A DNA stretch of 64,000 nucleotides from the NCBI GenBank assembly GCA_019119355.1, contig DWXE01000039.1:1-64000 (forward strand). Reading direction: 5' to 3'. This document shows, piece by piece, positions 25,934-49,341 of this stretch. Every line of letters starts with the position of its first letter. Within the stretch, counting starts at the first letter, position 1. The notes below the pieces were generated by a model that was given only the letters and a program-made list of their open reading frames with translations, was not told the origin of the DNA and ran no database searches. Source of the stretch: Candidatus Eisenbergiella merdigallinarum (GTDB lineage Bacteria; Bacillota; Clostridia; Lachnospirales; Lachnospiraceae). The translations under genes and the position numbers were made by a program.

Positions 25934-25969
25934 ATTAGCATTTACTAATTTTAATAAGCATAGACTAAC
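25934..25969. promoter_or_regulatory. Two putative iron boxes upstream of feoB
   Basis: ATTAGCATTTACTAAT (25934-25949) and ATAAGCATAGACTAAC (25954-25969) share a TTAG-N6-CTAA-like dyad, with the second copy imperfect. Their centres are 20 bases apart, two helical turns. The same dyad overlaps the feoA promoter at 26392-26407, suggesting shared control by a Fur- or DtxR-type regulator. Confidence 0.6.
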
Positions 25970-25971
25970 CT

Positions 25972-26006
25972 ATGCGTGAAAAAAATAGTGACGAATCACT
26001 ATTTTT
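25972..26006 (-). terminator. Strong terminator after feoA, UUCG tetraloop
   Basis: An 11-bp perfect stem (25981-25991 with 25996-26006) encloses TTCG on the minus strand, followed by further T residues. It begins inside the feoA stop codon and separates feoA from feoB transcription. Confidence 0.85.
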
Positions 26007-26217
26007 ATATTGAAATGGCTTTCGCCAGATCAGTATCGACGTTATACCGCCCGTCCTTGATGGAGACCACGCATCCACCCTTCAGATGGGAAACCACGGT
26101 GATGGGTTCGCCGCTGTAACAGCCCAGCGAGAACAAAAAGGAGGTCAACTCCTCGTCGTCCGCGGTGATTTCCTTCACGATATATTCTTCCCCTTCTTTG
26201 GCTTCCAGCAAATTCAT
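26005..26217 (-). CDS. feoA: FeoA family protein
   Basis: 70 aa, an SH3-like FeoA domain. ATG 26217 has GGAGG 5 bases upstream. Sequence features include the EEYIVKEITADDEELTSFLFSLGC core and PITVVSHLKGGCVVSIKDGRYNVD, typical of the family. FeoA is a small cytoplasmic partner of FeoB. The gene is preceded by a 136-nt repeated element, itself downstream of an iron-box promoter. An in-frame ATG 12 bases upstream (MEEN-) also exists and is shared with the other copy of the element. Confidence 0.93.
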   Translation of the reverse strand: MNLLEAKEGEEYIVKEITADDEELTSFLFSLGCYSGEPITVVSHLKGGCVVSIKDGRYNVDTDLAKAISI

Positions 26218-26218
26218 G

Positions 26219-26354
26219 TTTTCCTCCATTCCGAAGCGCTTTTGCGCTGAGGAACGCGCGCCAAATCTCAAATTTGGCGCTGCGATTCACGAATTTGTGA
26301 CGCTTCGGCACAAATTCTGATTGAAAAATAAGCCATCGGGCTTATTTTTCAATC
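26219..26354 (-). repeat. Dispersed structured element, copy A (5' leader of feoA)
   Basis: On the minus strand it contains, in order: a 16-bp perfect stem (26339-26354 with 26319-26334, loop CGAT); a 9-bp stem (26309-26317 with 26291-26299); a 9-bp stem GCGCCAAAT/ATTTGGCGC (26259-26280); a 5-bp AGCGC/GCGCT stem (26235-26248); and GGAGGAAAAC directly before the feoA ATG. 26219-26284 is identical to 46096-46161 and 26293-26354 matches 46184-46245 at 60 of 62 positions. A further GGAGTGG outside the 16-bp stem is also shared. With the promoter at 26395-26423 it accounts for most of the 308-base gap 26218-26525. Confidence 0.9.
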
Positions 26355-26391: not shown

Positions 26392-26423
26392 GTTAGTATA
26401 TGCTAACCAAAGATTGTTGTCAA
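26392..26423 (-). promoter_or_regulatory. feoA promoter overlapped by an iron box
   Basis: On the minus strand TTGACA (26418-26423), a 17-base spacer and TATACT (26395-26400). The -10 box lies inside the palindrome GTTAGTATATGCTAAC (26392-26407), the same type of dyad as the two boxes before feoB, so a bound repressor would block polymerase. Confidence 0.78.
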
Positions 26424-45433: not shown

Positions 45434-46094
45434 GTTCCATCCTCTTTTTTTCTGCAATTTTTGCGGCGTGAGCCCGGAGCGCTTCCTTCAGGAAGCGCCG
45501 GAAGCCGGCCCCGTCCTCTTCTACGGGGGTCCATTCCCCGATGTCATAAAAATGCCGTCCGGAAGGGTATTCCTGGCTGATGGCATCCAGCGGAAACCCC
45601 TCGATCCGCTGGGGCCGCTCGTCCTGGCAGAGGTAAAATCTCTCCCATGCCAGATCCCCGTCCTGACTGCAGTAGATTTCCTCCTCCGAAAACGCCAGAC
45701 AGACGGCATTCCGGTATTGCGCTACGCACCGTCCGCCCAGCCTTTTGGCGATCCCCTTATAATGAGCCCTCATCTCCCCGTCCGTCAGGGCGCGTCCTCC
45801 CACCCGCCGGACGAATGCTCCGGGCTGTTCCTCTTCGGGCAGGCCTTCGATATACAGCCCGCTGTCGACGGAAATCACCGGCCTTTGAAAAGCGGCGCAA
45901 TAGTACAGCGCCTTTTTCCTGGCGTTCTCCATCATATCGCGCCCGTCCTCTTCGGGCTCCAAAACGCGCAGTGGCAGATCCCCCAGCCCGATCAGCTCCA
46001 CCTCATCCATCCCCCGCAGATAGTTTCGCATGGCGGCCAGCTTTCCCGCGTTGGTCGTCCCAAACAGCAGGGAAAACTTCTTCGTCTCTTCCAT
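45411..46094 (-). CDS. HAM1/RdgB-like non-canonical purine NTP pyrophosphatase
   Basis: 227 aa. The nucleotide-binding start LLFGTTNAGKLAAMRNYL, the conserved ENARKKALYYC and the DSGLYIEGL motif identify the Maf/HAM1 inosine triphosphate pyrophosphatase fold. The enzyme removes ITP/XTP-like nucleotides. It diverges from canonical RdgB at several positions, so substrate range is uncertain. ATG 46094 is preceded by GGAGG that belongs to the repeated element, copy B. The adjacent AlaX fusion is another quality-control enzyme, a suggestive grouping. Confidence 0.88.
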   Translation of the reverse strand: MEETKKFSLLFGTTNAGKLAAMRNYLRGMDEVELIGLGDLPLRVLEPEEDGRDMMENARKKALYYCAAFQRPVISVDSGLYIEGLPEEEQPGAFVRRVGGRALTDGEMRAHYKGIAKRLGGRCVAQYRNAVCLAFSEEEIYCSQDGDLAWERFYLCQDERPQRIEGFPLDAISQEYPSGRHFYDIGEWTPVEEDGAGFRRFLKEALRAHAAKIAEKKRMEHDGTDLL

Positions 46095-46095
46095 A

Positions 46096-46245
46096 TTTTC
46101 CTCCATTCCGAAGCGCTTTTGCGCTGAGGAACGCGCGCCAAATCTCAAATTTGGCGCTGCGCAAGGATACTTCGTATCCTGGGATTTGTGACGCTTTGGC
46201 ACAAATCCTGATTGAAAAATAAGCCATCGGGCTTATTTTTCAATC
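46096..46245 (-). repeat. Dispersed structured element, copy B (leader of the HAM1-type gene)
   Basis: Second copy of the element at 26219-26354, 150 nt. It has the same order of stems: 16-bp (46210-46225 with 46230-46245), 9-bp (46182-46190 with 46200-46208), 9-bp GCGCCAAAT/ATTTGGCGC and AGCGC/GCGCT, then GGAGG before the ATG. It carries an extra 7-bp hairpin AGGATAC/GTATCCT (46164-46180) where copy A has only 8 unrelated bases. The element fills the whole space between the stop of the 73-aa gene and the HAM1-type start. Confidence 0.9.
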
Positions 46246-46246
46246 C

Positions 46247-46468
46247 TCACCACTCCCTGCGGATCTCATCCGCCGAAATTCCGTATGTTTTCAAAAATTC
46301 CTCCCGGTCCCGATCCGTCCGAAGGCACATCACTTCCCGGAAGCGGCCTGTGGACCGGTCCTTAAATCCCGCCACCTGCTCCCCGGTGCAGATGCTGCTT
46401 CTGATGGCCGGAATTTCCTTTTCCCGGTCGAAGGTTTTGACCCCGTTTCCTTTCCGTTTTCCAAACAT
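46247..46468 (-). CDS. Small conserved protein of unknown function
   Basis: 73 aa. ATG 46468 has GGGAGG 9 bases upstream. The sequence is hydrophilic with a beta-rich middle: IRSSICTGEQVAGFKDRSTG, then REVMCLRTDRDREEFLKTYG, ending SADEIRREW. Similar short proteins occur in Lachnospiraceae, sometimes mislabelled aspartate dehydrogenase. There is no recognisable domain. The GGAGTGG just outside the 16-bp stem of the repeated element overlaps its last two sense codons. Confidence 0.75.
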   Translation of the reverse strand: MFGKRKGNGVKTFDREKEIPAIRSSICTGEQVAGFKDRSTGRFREVMCLRTDRDREEFLKTYGISADEIRREW

Positions 46469-47440: not shown

Positions 47441-47472
47441 ATTCTTAAAAACGATTAGGGAGGCGCTTGCAT

Positions 47473-49341
47473 ATGACGATCAAAGAAGCTGCGGCAGCAT
47501 GGGGAATTACGGAGCGGCGGGTCAACGAACTTTGCAAATCGGGACGGATCGCCGGAGCGTACAGGACGGGCAGGCAATGGTTCCTTCCGAACGACGCGCC
47601 AAAGCCGGCGGATAAGCGCGTCCGTCGAAGTCAGGTTCCTACGGCGGACCCTTCCCCGCGCAGGCCCCTTCCCATCGGCGTTTCGGATTTTCGGGACGCC
47701 TGCGCCAACTACTACTATGTGGACAAAACGATGCTCATCCGGGATTTCCTGGACGAACGGCCGAAAGTATCCCTGTTCACGCGCCCCCGCCGTTTTGGAA
47801 AGACGCTGAACATGGATATGCTCCGCACTTTCTTCGAAAAAACGGATCAGGATACCTCCCTCTATTTCAGGGATAAGAAAATCTGGTCCTGCGGGGAAAC
47901 ATACCGGGCCCATCAGGGAAAATATCCCTTGATCTTCCTGTCCTTTAAGGATGTAAAATATTCCTCCTGGGAGGAAACCCGTCAGACCCTTCAAAAGCTC
48001 ATCGGCCAGGAATTTCGCCGTCATGACGAGCTGGCATCCAGCGCCGCGCTCAGCGATTACGAAAAGGAGGAGTTTTCCCGTCTCGCAACGGAAACGGCCG
48101 ACGAAGTGGCCTGCCAGATGTCCCTGCGGACGCTGACGCTGTTTCTCCATAAGCACCATGGCATCGCTCCCATCGTAATCATCGACGAATACGACACGCC
48201 CATCCAGCAGGGCCATGTAAACGGTTTCTACGATACGGTCATCGGTTTTATGCGCAACCTGTTCTCCGGCGGGCTGAAGGACAATCCGCATTTGAGCTAC
48301 GGTTTTCTGACCGGCATCCTGCGCGTCGCCAGGGAGAGCATCTTCAGCGGGCTGAACAACCTGAAGATCAATTCCATCCTGGATGAACGGTACAGCGAAT
48401 ACTTCGGCTTCACTTCCGATGAAGTGCGGAAGATGGCGGCATATTACGGCGCTTCCGAAAAGTACCAGGAGCTCTGCGACTGGTACGACGGTTACCGTTT
48501 CGGCAATACCGATATTTTTAATCCCTGGTCCGTGACCGGATATTTCAGTAACAGCTGCCGCCCCAAAGCCTTCTGGCAGTCCACTGGCAGCAACGATATT
48601 ATCGGAGAAACGCTGGCCTCCGCCACGCCGGAGATCGTGGAGCGCCTGGAGCTGTTGATGAAGGGCGAATCCTTTGTTACCCACATCGACACCGGCGTCA
48701 TCTATCCGCAGATCCGAAACGATCCTTCCTCCGTCTACAGTTTCCTGCTGGTGTCAGGCTATCTGAAGGCGGTAAACAGCGCCCAGCCCTATGGCGAGGA
48801 CTATATGTGCGAGGTCGCGCTGCCGAACAGGGAAATCTCCTTCGTTTACAGCAAGGAAATCCTTTCCCGGCTCAGCTCCGTGATCCCCCGCTCCGCCGCG
48901 GTTTCCATTCAGGAGGCCATCTATCGGATGGATATCGATGCCCTGCAAAAGGCGCTGGAAAATTTTCTGCTGCAAACGATCAGCTTTCACGATGCCGCTT
49001 CCGAAACCTTTTACCACGGCCTGATCCTGGGCATGTGCGCCGTGATGGACAACAGCTACCGGATCACTTCCAACCGCGAAGCCGGCGAGGGCCGGTTCGA
49101 TATCCAGATGCTTCCGATGGATCAACGGCTTCCCGGCATCCTGATCGAGCTCAAAGCCAGGAAAGACTGCTCCGGGCCGCAGCTGGAAAACCTGTCCCGC
49201 CTCGCTCTGCAGCAGATCGGCGACCGCGCGTACGATACGGAGCTGCGGGCGATGAAAGTCGCTTCCATCATAAGGATCGGCATCGCTTTTTCCGGCAAAA
49301 CGGCCCGCATTGCCGCCGAACGGCAAAATGTTGAAAAATAG
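47473..49341 (+). CDS. HTH-fused AAA-ATPase-like/PD-(D/E)XK nuclease protein
   Basis: 622 aa from ATG 47473 (GGGAGG 9 bases upstream). Residues 1-45 form an excisionase-type helix-turn-helix (MTIKEAAAAWGITERRVNELCKSGRI). Residues ~65-290 are the AAA-ATPase-like domain: IGVSDFRDACANYYYVDKT, Walker A LFTRPRRFGKTLNM and Walker B IVIIDEYDTP. The C-terminal ~90 residues are the associated nuclease domain, with D in GRFDIQM and ExK in LIELKARK. The common form of this family lacks the HTH. Its role is unknown; a mobile or defence-related function has been suggested for relatives. Confidence 0.88.
   Translation: MTIKEAAAAWGITERRVNELCKSGRIAGAYRTGRQWFLPNDAPKPADKRVRRSQVPTADPSPRRPLPIGVSDFRDACANYYYVDKTMLIRDFLDERPKVSLFTRPRRFGKTLNMDMLRTFFEKTDQDTSLYFRDKKIWSCGETYRAHQGKYPLIFLSFKDVKYSSWEETRQTLQKLIGQEFRRHDELASSAALSDYEKEEFSRLATETADEVACQMSLRTLTLFLHKHHGIAPIVIIDEYDTPIQQGHVNGFYDTVIGFMRNLFSGGLKDNPHLSYGFLTGILRVARESIFSGLNNLKINSILDERYSEYFGFTSDEVRKMAAYYGASEKYQELCDWYDGYRFGNTDIFNPWSVTGYFSNSCRPKAFWQSTGSNDIIGETLASATPEIVERLELLMKGESFVTHIDTGVIYPQIRNDPSSVYSFLLVSGYLKAVNSAQPYGEDYMCEVALPNREISFVYSKEILSRLSSVIPRSAAVSIQEAIYRMDIDALQKALENFLLQTISFHDAASETFYHGLILGMCAVMDNSYRITSNREAGEGRFDIQMLPMDQRLPGILIELKARKDCSGPQLENLSRLALQQIGDRAYDTELRAMKVASIIRIGIAFSGKTARIAAERQNVEK

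What the first reader, a model, noticed from the sequence alone, without database searches (positions are those of the whole stretch)
26219..26354. Structured repeated element inserted in the feoA 5' leader, with compensatory base change
Two copies in the window share the same ordered series of hairpins. In the 9-bp stem, copy A has GAATTTGTG/CACAAATTC and copy B has GGATTTGTG/CACAAATCC: an A-T pair replaced by G-C on both sides, which implies selection on pairing rather than chance. The outer 16-bp stem with A/T runs could act as a terminator on the nascent leader. The element carries its own Shine-Dalgarno and an in-frame ATGGAGGAAAAC ahead of the gene start. The other copy precedes an unrelated gene, so this is not an iron riboswitch; a mobile or domesticated leader RNA is more likely.
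Basis: partly seen in the sequence, partly recalled or inferred. Interest (0 to 1): 0.85.

Follow-up and report, generated by a model that had tools for sequence, protein, structure and literature searches.

The report
Mobile element inserting at ribosome-binding sites
A small structured DNA element has spread through many gut bacteria, apparently of the Lachnospiraceae, by inserting between a gene's ribosome-binding site and its start codon, bringing a new ribosome-binding site with it.

Summary
The 136-nt element has 10 near full-length copies in its own genome. It occurs in 11 of 13 genomes of the genus and 34 of 250 genomes sampled one per genus from the family; one genome has 108 matches. 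Most copies start right after a Shine-Dalgarno (SD)-like sequence (78 of 101). Of 103 copies, 85 precede an ORF of 60 or more codons, 70 of them with the ATG exactly one base after the element's own SD end. Sister species have empty sites, and one genome holds three identical copies at different loci, so it moves. A pseudoknot next to the SD covaries strongly. Target genes are unrelated, so it is no iron riboswitch. Rfam has no match at threshold. Y1 transposase has no match in 14 carrier genomes, reverse transcriptase and IS110 none in several, so the mobilising enzyme is unknown. The nearest known kind is the mycobacterial MIRU.

The parts
26219..26354 (-). copy A of the element (136 nt), in the 5' leader of feoA
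   Evidence: CM score 168.4 bits
26355..26364 (-). target-side Shine-Dalgarno AGGAGTGGAA directly before the element (SD1)
   Evidence: SD-like 4-mer in the 14 nt before the element in 78 of 101 copies against 15-27 of 97-100 in control windows
26319..26354 (-). P1: 16-bp hairpin GATTGAAAAATAAGCC/GGCTTATTTTTCAATC, loop CGAT
   Evidence: 16 of 16 pairs with both-side changes in A3
26287..26352 (-). leader ORF TTG AAA AAT AAG ... TGA, 21 codons and stop, starting in P1 at normal spacing from SD1
   Evidence: translation is inferred, not shown
26291..26317 (-). P2: 9-bp hairpin GAATTTGTG/CACAAATTC with loop CCGAAGCGT
26301..26308 (-). pseudoknot 5' strand CCGAAGCG (P2 loop)
26259..26279 (-). P4: hairpin CGCCAAATT/GATTTGGCG, variable in sequence
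   Evidence: 8 of 9 pairs with both-side changes
26235..26248 (-). P5: hairpin AGCGC-AAAA-GCGCT, excludes the pseudoknot
   Evidence: weak covariation
26231..26238 (-). pseudoknot 3' strand CGCTTCGG, just before the element's SD
26223..26227 (-). element's own Shine-Dalgarno GGAGG (SD2)
26005..26217 (-). feoA (FeoA domain, PF04023), start codon one base after the element
26395..26423 (-). promoter-like TTGACA-17-TATACT upstream of feoA; if used, the element lies in the transcribed leader
   Evidence: 11 of 12 matches; consensus only
46096..46245 (-). copy B (150 nt, with an extra hairpin), before a Ham1-family gene starting at 46094
46253..46258 (-). SD1 of copy B (AGGGAG), inside the last codons of an upstream ORF that stops at 46247

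Best explanation
It is a small mobile element (about 135-145 nt in many intact copies) that inserts between the Shine-Dalgarno sequence and the start codon of host genes. The target's SD is left at the 5' edge of the element, next to an NTG in the first hairpin, where it can start a short leader ORF. The 3' edge of the element carries a fresh SD (GGAATGGAGG) at the right distance from the host ATG, so the gene can still be translated. This would make the insertion nearly neutral and explains the fixed position, the large copy numbers and the unrelated target genes. Shown: presence-absence at orthologous sites and identical copies at different loci (movement), the target rule, the element's own SD, a conserved fold with a pseudoknot. 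Inferred: that the leader ORF is translated, that SD2 is used, and that a recombinase recognises the folded strand and a target resembling the element's joined ends (SD-TTA-GT-NTG-AAA looks like a translation start). The enzyme is unknown.
For: Three 145-nt copies, 100% identical, at three loci of G006: their 5' flanks differ (two of the three resemble the element's own 3' end) but they share the 3' end GACATGGAGGGAAA, so SD2 belongs to the element. Two identical 141-nt copies lie on different contigs with different flanks in G008; a 99.3% copy lies in G012 at a site that is empty in G008. Eleven orthologous starts were read for four (L099, L102, L096, L090) of the 13 filled loci searched; 10 plainly lack the element and one (L290) may hold a relic. 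feoA orthologs in G002 and G003 lack it. SD-like sequence before the element: 78 of 101, controls 27/100, 25/99, 15/97, 15/97. Start at +1: 70 of the 85 with an ORF of 60 or more codons, of 103. NTG at P1 nt 3-5: 84 of 101 (GTG 40, TTG 37, CTG 4, ATG 3); in these 84 that frame is open for a median of 22 codons against 0 and 2 in the other frames. Patchy distribution, 34 of 250. Downstream genes of unrelated families.
Against: No autonomous copy (fetched loci only) and no mobilising enzyme was found. No constant long target duplication; a duplication of one to three bases is not excluded, and a partial likeness of the 5' flank to the own 3' end (10 of 58 against 3.1 expected) is unexplained. 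Strong pairing conservation could also reflect a regulatory RNA. C is rare at P1 nt 2 as well as at nt 3, so the NTG pattern alone does not prove a start codon. Some sites are shared between species (L083/L084), so not all copies are recent. G008 is 68% complete and in 230 contigs, so its identical copies rest on a draft assembly.
Confidence: 0.83

Rival explanations
1. A cis-regulatory leader RNA (riboswitch or attenuator-like): ribosomes on the leader ORF, or a ligand, toggle the pseudoknot and thereby SD2, and copies were recruited as a regulon.
For: Conserved pseudoknot next to SD2; leader ORF through P1 and P2; a competing local hairpin P5 with weak covariation, own 4.43 against 4.18 shuffled, highest shuffle 4.36.
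Against: The 20 downstream proteins scanned share no pathway. Identical copies sit at different genes, and orthologs in sisters lack the element. Predicted SD2 accessibility changes only from 0.39 to 0.49 when the pseudoknot strands are blocked: up by >0.1 in 40 of 94, down in 19 of 94. Eleven of 103 copies precede ORFs of <30 codons.
Confidence: 0.1
2. A non-autonomous element moved by an IS200/IS605-type (Y1) or RAYT transposase, like PATEs or REPs.
For: Hairpins, no inverted ends seen by eye, insertion directly 3' of a short target that resembles the element's own 3' end. Y1 is present in some carriers: G007, G009, G010 and a fragment in G005, G073 and G026, marginal in G024.
Against: Y1_Tnp (PF01797) has no match in carriers G000, G001, G002, G006, G008, G011, G012 (completeness 58-98%) and G106, G208, G230, G170, G194, G072, G110 (97-100%). 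The latter seven hold 11-108 matches.
Confidence: 0.05
3. Not an insertion: an old leader inherited vertically and lost repeatedly, with the copies homogenised by gene conversion.
For: Some positions are shared between species: L083/L084, 98.5% identical copies with like flanks, and ogt in G000 (Pfam) and, by its N-terminus only, in G001.
Against: 100% identical copies with unrelated flanks; patchy presence; empty sites keep an SD-spacer-ATG without evident remnants in 10 of 11.
Confidence: 0.05

Closest known systems
Mycobacterial interspersed repetitive units (MIRU)
   Same: Short, mobile-looking units that insert at start codons and carry an ORF coupled to the target gene, so that the insertion costs little (one passage of the review PMC12548453 seen).
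   Different: Sequence relation was not tested. This element inserts between SD and start codon, brings its own SD, and has a conserved pseudoknotted fold. Of 78 copies with an NTG-started leader ORF and an ATG in range, the ORF stops 67-82 nt before the gene in 31, elsewhere before it in 23, within -4 to +3 of the start in 6, runs past it out of frame in 6 and in frame in 12.
Pneumococcal BOX, RUP and SPRITE repeats
   Same: Small interspersed repeats that form stem-loops, no host role evident, some BOX elements carrying ORFs (passages of PMC3049150 seen).
   Different: BOX and RUP are described with terminal inverted repeats and target duplications, and all three as overrepresented between convergent genes, not in the SD-ATG gap.
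Rfam TD-2 RNA (RF03162; that it is named after Treponema denticola is recalled)
   Same: Read on its reverse strand it has the same order of a TGAAAA/TTTTCA hairpin, a TTTTGC/GCAAAA hairpin and a further hairpin (alignment); full-length hits of 35.7-40.1 bits in 6 of 46 copies or loci examined, all six antisense to the element.
   Different: All hits are below the gathering score of 48.7; none in 20 G194 loci. A weaker hit of 24.9 bits in the window lies on the sense strand. Its position relative to genes could not be checked here.
PATE/REP elements of IS200/IS605 (recalled)
   Same: Hairpins, short target, no inverted ends seen.
   Different: No Y1 transposase match in 14 carrier genomes, seven of them 97-100% complete family genomes.

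Membership tests
MIRU-like start-codon-targeting repeat | inserts at start codons of unrelated genes | tested here: met
   70 of 85 starts at +1; empty sites; unrelated Pfam families
MIRU-like start-codon-targeting repeat | internal ORF overlapping the gene start by 4 nt | tested here: not met
   stop at +1 of the start only in L004, L131, L135, L166 of 78 copies
MIRU-like start-codon-targeting repeat | sequence homology to mycobacterial MIRU | not tested
   no MIRU sequence was compared
IS200/IS605-derived element (PATE, REP) | Y1 transposase in carrier genomes | tested here: not met
   no match in G000, G006, G194, G106, G208 and nine other carriers; present in G007, G009, G010, G073, G026
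Retroelement or group II intron derivative | reverse transcriptase in carrier genomes | tested here: not met
   RVT_1 in 5 of 13 genus genomes; none in carriers G000, G001, G002, G006, G008, G009, G011; other genera not tested
IS110 family with bridge RNA | DEDD IS110 transposase in carrier genomes | tested here: not met
   over cut-off in 6 of 13 genus genomes; none over cut-off in carriers G000, G001, G005, G006, G008; other genera not tested
Classical MITE | terminal inverted repeats and constant target duplication | tested here: inconclusive
   identical copies share the 3' SD but not the 5' flank, so the SD is no target duplication; no inverted ends seen by eye; a duplication of 1-3 bases is not excluded
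Known Rfam family | score at or above gathering | tested here: not met
   0 hits in the window; TD-2 at most 40.1 against 48.7
Iron riboswitch of feoA | copies before iron-uptake genes | tested here: not met
   20 proteins scanned: FeoA once, else Ham1, CoaX, PTA/PTB, mannosidase, UvrA, Ogt, LexA, OTCase, MetG and others

The most novel reading that the evidence does not exclude
A new class of mobile element whose joined ends imitate a translation start (SD-TTA-GT-NTG-AAA) and which recombines into real translation starts through its pseudoknotted single strand, using none of the three enzyme types tested here (Y1, reverse transcriptase, IS110). The TD-2 RNAs of Treponema would be distant members of the same class, described on the wrong strand.
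Probability: 0.3. Interest if true: 0.9.

Novelty: new variant of a known kind. Interest (0 to 1): 0.75.

Why it matters
It shows how a mobile element could occupy one of the most sensitive spots of a gene, the gap between ribosome-binding site and start codon, without silencing the gene, and reach 108 matches in a 2.7-Mb genome. It appears to rewrite ribosome-binding sites of its hosts: in the window's genome 10 further genes carry the CTTCGGAATGGAGGA end before their ATG without a full copy. It gives a test case for leader translation in gut bacteria, and a search for an unknown mobilising enzyme.

Tried and rejected
Iron riboswitch: rejected, targets are unrelated. Rfam families: nothing at threshold in the window; TD-2 kept only as a lead; other sub-threshold hits (U1, mir-2731, mir-242, Termite-flg, AS-pc01, IsrM, snoRNAs) taken as chance. 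Y1, reverse transcriptase and IS110 as movers: presence and absence do not fit. Autonomous long copy: searched in the loci held by P2 without a tail and tail without P2, none found (one locus, L140, is masked there). Phage or plasmid carriage: none in viral contigs (exact core only), plasmids or phages (both with one copy, L087, as query). The SD as a target duplication: rejected because identical copies share the 3' SD with different 5' flanks, but a partial likeness of flank to own 3' end is significant. SD gating by the pseudoknot: folding gave no clear effect. My first pseudoknot check was one base out of register (own 3.14 against 3.10 shuffled) and is not used; replace it. Empty sites among the loci already held: none found. 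L357-L359 are identical including the flanks shown, so part of a longer repeat, and were not counted as independent movement. Literature: the listings showed no description of this element; one search matched 723 papers, of which 8 were listed, so this is not exhaustive, and only open-licence PMC papers are held. The primary MIRU paper was not seen. PMC2864571 holds neither TD-1 nor TD-2 by the term search.

Full report
OBSERVATION. The two window copies are present as described, both on the - strand. Copy A (26219-26354) ends one base before the feoA ATG; copy B (46096-46245) ends one base before the ATG of a Ham1-family gene. Both fold far better than shuffled sequence (z -8.0 and -8.4). The A-T to G-C exchange in the 9-bp stem is real.

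COPIES. A BLAST of the 136 nt in the window's own genome gives 34 matches, 10 of them near full length at 85-100% identity, the query itself included. A covariance model R1 (12 copies) gives 58 matches at E<=1, some of them antisense or weak, and 19 at E<=1e-6. R1 finds the element in 11 of 13 genomes of the genus at E<=0.001 and in 34 of 250 genomes drawn one per genus from the family at E<=1e-6 with stricter filters. I then chose 18 genomes, 14 with and 4 without matches before: matches at E<=1e-6 were 108 in G194, 46 in G106, 45 in G208, 35 in G073, 25 in G008, 19 in G000, 11-19 in eight others and 0 in the four. That the window's own family is Lachnospiraceae is inferred from this. The same pattern has 0 matches in viral contigs, and blastn with one copy finds nothing in plasmids or phages.

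ANATOMY (sense strand). P1 is a 16-bp hairpin; P2 a hairpin around the loop CCGRAGCG in the common form; P4 a hairpin of variable sequence; then the strand CGCTYCGG, then GGAATGGAG, then usually 6 bases and an ATG. Alignment A3 holds 103 matches from 100 of the loci held (60 of the 118). In it 97.0% of 3956 pair cells are standard pairs against 79.4% in shuffles, 32 of 42 pairs have changes on both sides, and sliding the partners drops pairing to 35-48%. A3 was fitted to P1, P2, P4 and P5, not to the pseudoknot; the loci were picked by an exact P2 core, which holds their loop fixed. In the pseudoknot, pair 122/330 is G-C 63, A-U 27, G-U 10, other 2. Other subfamilies change the whole loop together with its partner (CGCAGACG with CGTCTGCG, CGAGAACGC with GCGTTCTCG, GTCGGGGCGC with GCGCTCCGAC). 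Over 122 of 141 copies with a recognisable loop the longest complement averages 8.75 against 6.73 for shuffled partners (highest of 200 shuffles 7.16); over 34 distinct loops, decayed ones included, 8.3 against 6.3 (highest of 500 shuffles 7.06). A repeat on 92 distinct combinations gave 8.52 against 6.28. A competing local hairpin P5 has only weak support (4.43 against 4.18, highest shuffle 4.36).

TARGET RULE. Of 123 exact cores, 94 had the 3' motif within 250 nt by a strict pattern, and in 61 of these the ATG lay exactly 6 nt after GGAG. In A3, 85 of 103 copies are followed by an ORF of at least 60 codons starting at -2 to +7, 70 of them at +1. Of the 18 others, one ORF runs off the locus, two have no start codon in range (one of them masked), four have ORFs of 30-59 codons and eleven have ORFs under 30 codons; nine of these eleven still have ATG at +1. 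This suggests that the ATG is part of the target and not merely kept by selection, though small or decayed genes could explain some. The 14 nt before the element hold an SD-like 4-mer in 78 of 101 copies, against 27/100, 25/99, 15/97 and 15/97 in windows further upstream. In a set with strict ends (77 copies out of 147 cores found) that drops 19 flanks containing AATGG it is 50 of 58.

LEADER ORF. The target SD stands at normal spacing before an NTG in P1 (84 of 101: GTG 40, TTG 37, CTG 4, ATG 3). In these 84 that frame is open for a median of 22 codons; the other two stop after medians of 0 and 2. Typical translations are MKNKPDGLFFNQNLCRSVTNS (copy A) and MKNKLDSLFFTRLFVPERHK. Of 78 with an ATG in range, the ORF stops 67-82 nt before it in 31, elsewhere before it in 23, within -4 to +3 in 6, past it out of frame in 6 and in frame in 12, which could give an extended host protein. 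Translation is inferred, not shown. Against it: C is rare at P1 nt 2 as well as nt 3, so base bias alone could favour NTG, and the later part of the ORF is not kept in one frame.

MOBILITY. Joined flanks of 13 loci searched in the genus gave contiguous hits across junctions. I read 11 orthologous starts for the filled loci L099, L102, L096 and L090; 10 lack the element, one (L290) may hold a relic. The feoA orthologs of G002 and G003 have none. Identical copies occur at different loci: L095 and L104 (141 nt, G008, a 68% complete draft), whose 99.3% relative L102 sits in G012 at a site empty in G008, and L360, L361, L362 (145 nt, G006). The G006 trio shares the 3' end GACATGGAGGGAAA while the 5' flanks differ, so the second SD is part of the element. 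Still, flanks resemble the own 3' end more than permutation allows (10 of 58 suffix matches of 6 or more against 3.1, P 2e-4), and some flanks carry the 3' end of an older copy. This fits repeated insertion into similar starts; gene conversion is possible. Other copies are older: L083 and L084 are orthologous by their flanks.

RELICS. The motif CTTCGGAATGGAGGA occurs 76 times at up to 2 mismatches in the own genome against 6 for the reversed pattern. Of 20 exact matches, 9 are 3' ends of full copies, one is the 5' flank of copy L006, and the other 10 (some of them decayed copies, such as L037, L042 and L044) stand 2-4 bases before an ATG. I read these as ribosome-binding sites left by decayed copies; this is inference.

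FUNCTION. Twenty downstream proteins fall into unrelated Pfam families, among them FeoA, Ham1, pantothenate kinase, PTA/PTB, UvrA, LexA, ornithine carbamoyltransferase and methionyl-tRNA synthetase. Blocking the pseudoknot strands in a folding model changes mean SD2 accessibility from 0.39 to 0.49, rising by more than 0.1 in 40 of 94 and falling in 19 of 94, so a simple switch is not supported. A consensus promoter TTGACA-17-TATACT lies upstream of copy A, so the element is probably transcribed in the feoA leader. No terminator-like site was called.

MOVER. Y1 transposase has no match in carriers G000, G001, G002, G006, G008, G011 and G012, but is present in G007, G009, G010 and as a fragment in G005. 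Of ten copy-rich family genomes it has no match in G106, G208, G230, G170, G194, G072 and G110, is present in G073 and G026 and marginal in G024. Reverse transcriptase has no match in carriers G000, G001, G002, G006, G008, G009 and G011, IS110 none over its cut-off in G000, G001, G005, G006 and G008; these two were tested in the genus only. The genomes are incomplete to varying degrees (G000 90%, G001 58%, G008 68%), so absence in any one is weak, but seven copy-rich genomes at 97-100% lack Y1. No long copy with a gene inside was found in the loci held.

KNOWN KINDS. The closest in behaviour are MIRUs, described in a review passage as apparently mobile units that insert at start codons with a coupled ORF, likely minimising their effect (PMC12548453). 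The lead on TD-2: in 6 of 46 copies or loci examined RF03162 scores 35.7-40.1 bits, below its cut-off of 48.7, full length and antisense to the element; one weaker hit (24.9 bits) is on the sense strand, and 20 G194 loci have none. These copies are related to each other, so the hits are not independent. The printed alignment shows the same order of hairpins read backwards. No Treponema genome could be read here.

VERDICT. A real, widespread mobile element with a new target rule and a pseudoknotted fold that no Rfam family matched at threshold; behaviour akin to MIRU, mover unknown.

Noticed in passing
window 26392-26407: Palindrome GTTAGTATATGCTAAC overlaps the -10 of the feoA promoter; similar TTAGCATTTACTAA and AAGCATAGACTAACC motifs lie before feoB (about 25935-25970). 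They look like an iron- or manganese-dependent repressor operator (recalled, not tested).
   Followed up: no
window 47467-49341: AAA-ATPase_like plus PDDEXK_9 nuclease protein about 1.2 kb from copy B; not tested for association with the element.
   Followed up: partly
G106 loci L357, L358, L359: An element copy identical together with the flanks shown at three places, so it rides inside a longer repeat.
   Followed up: partly
G000:C36:170950-171156 and one place in each of eight other genus genomes: Weak, below-cut-off DEDD_Tnp_IS110 matches inside 1215-1444-codon open frames, possibly Cas9-like RuvC domains (guess).
   Followed up: no
L127 1-53: A partial T-box match (30.3 bits, below its cut-off of 93, cut at the end of the locus) upstream of an element copy before a gene that looks like prolyl-tRNA synthetase by eye.
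   Followed up: no
L096, L131: Likely orthologs by eye (N-terminus KEKLYTIPLNDAVN / KEQLYTIPLNDAVN; L096 is DUF6062) in two different genomes both carry an element, of different subfamilies, at the start codon, perhaps independent insertions at one start.
   Followed up: no
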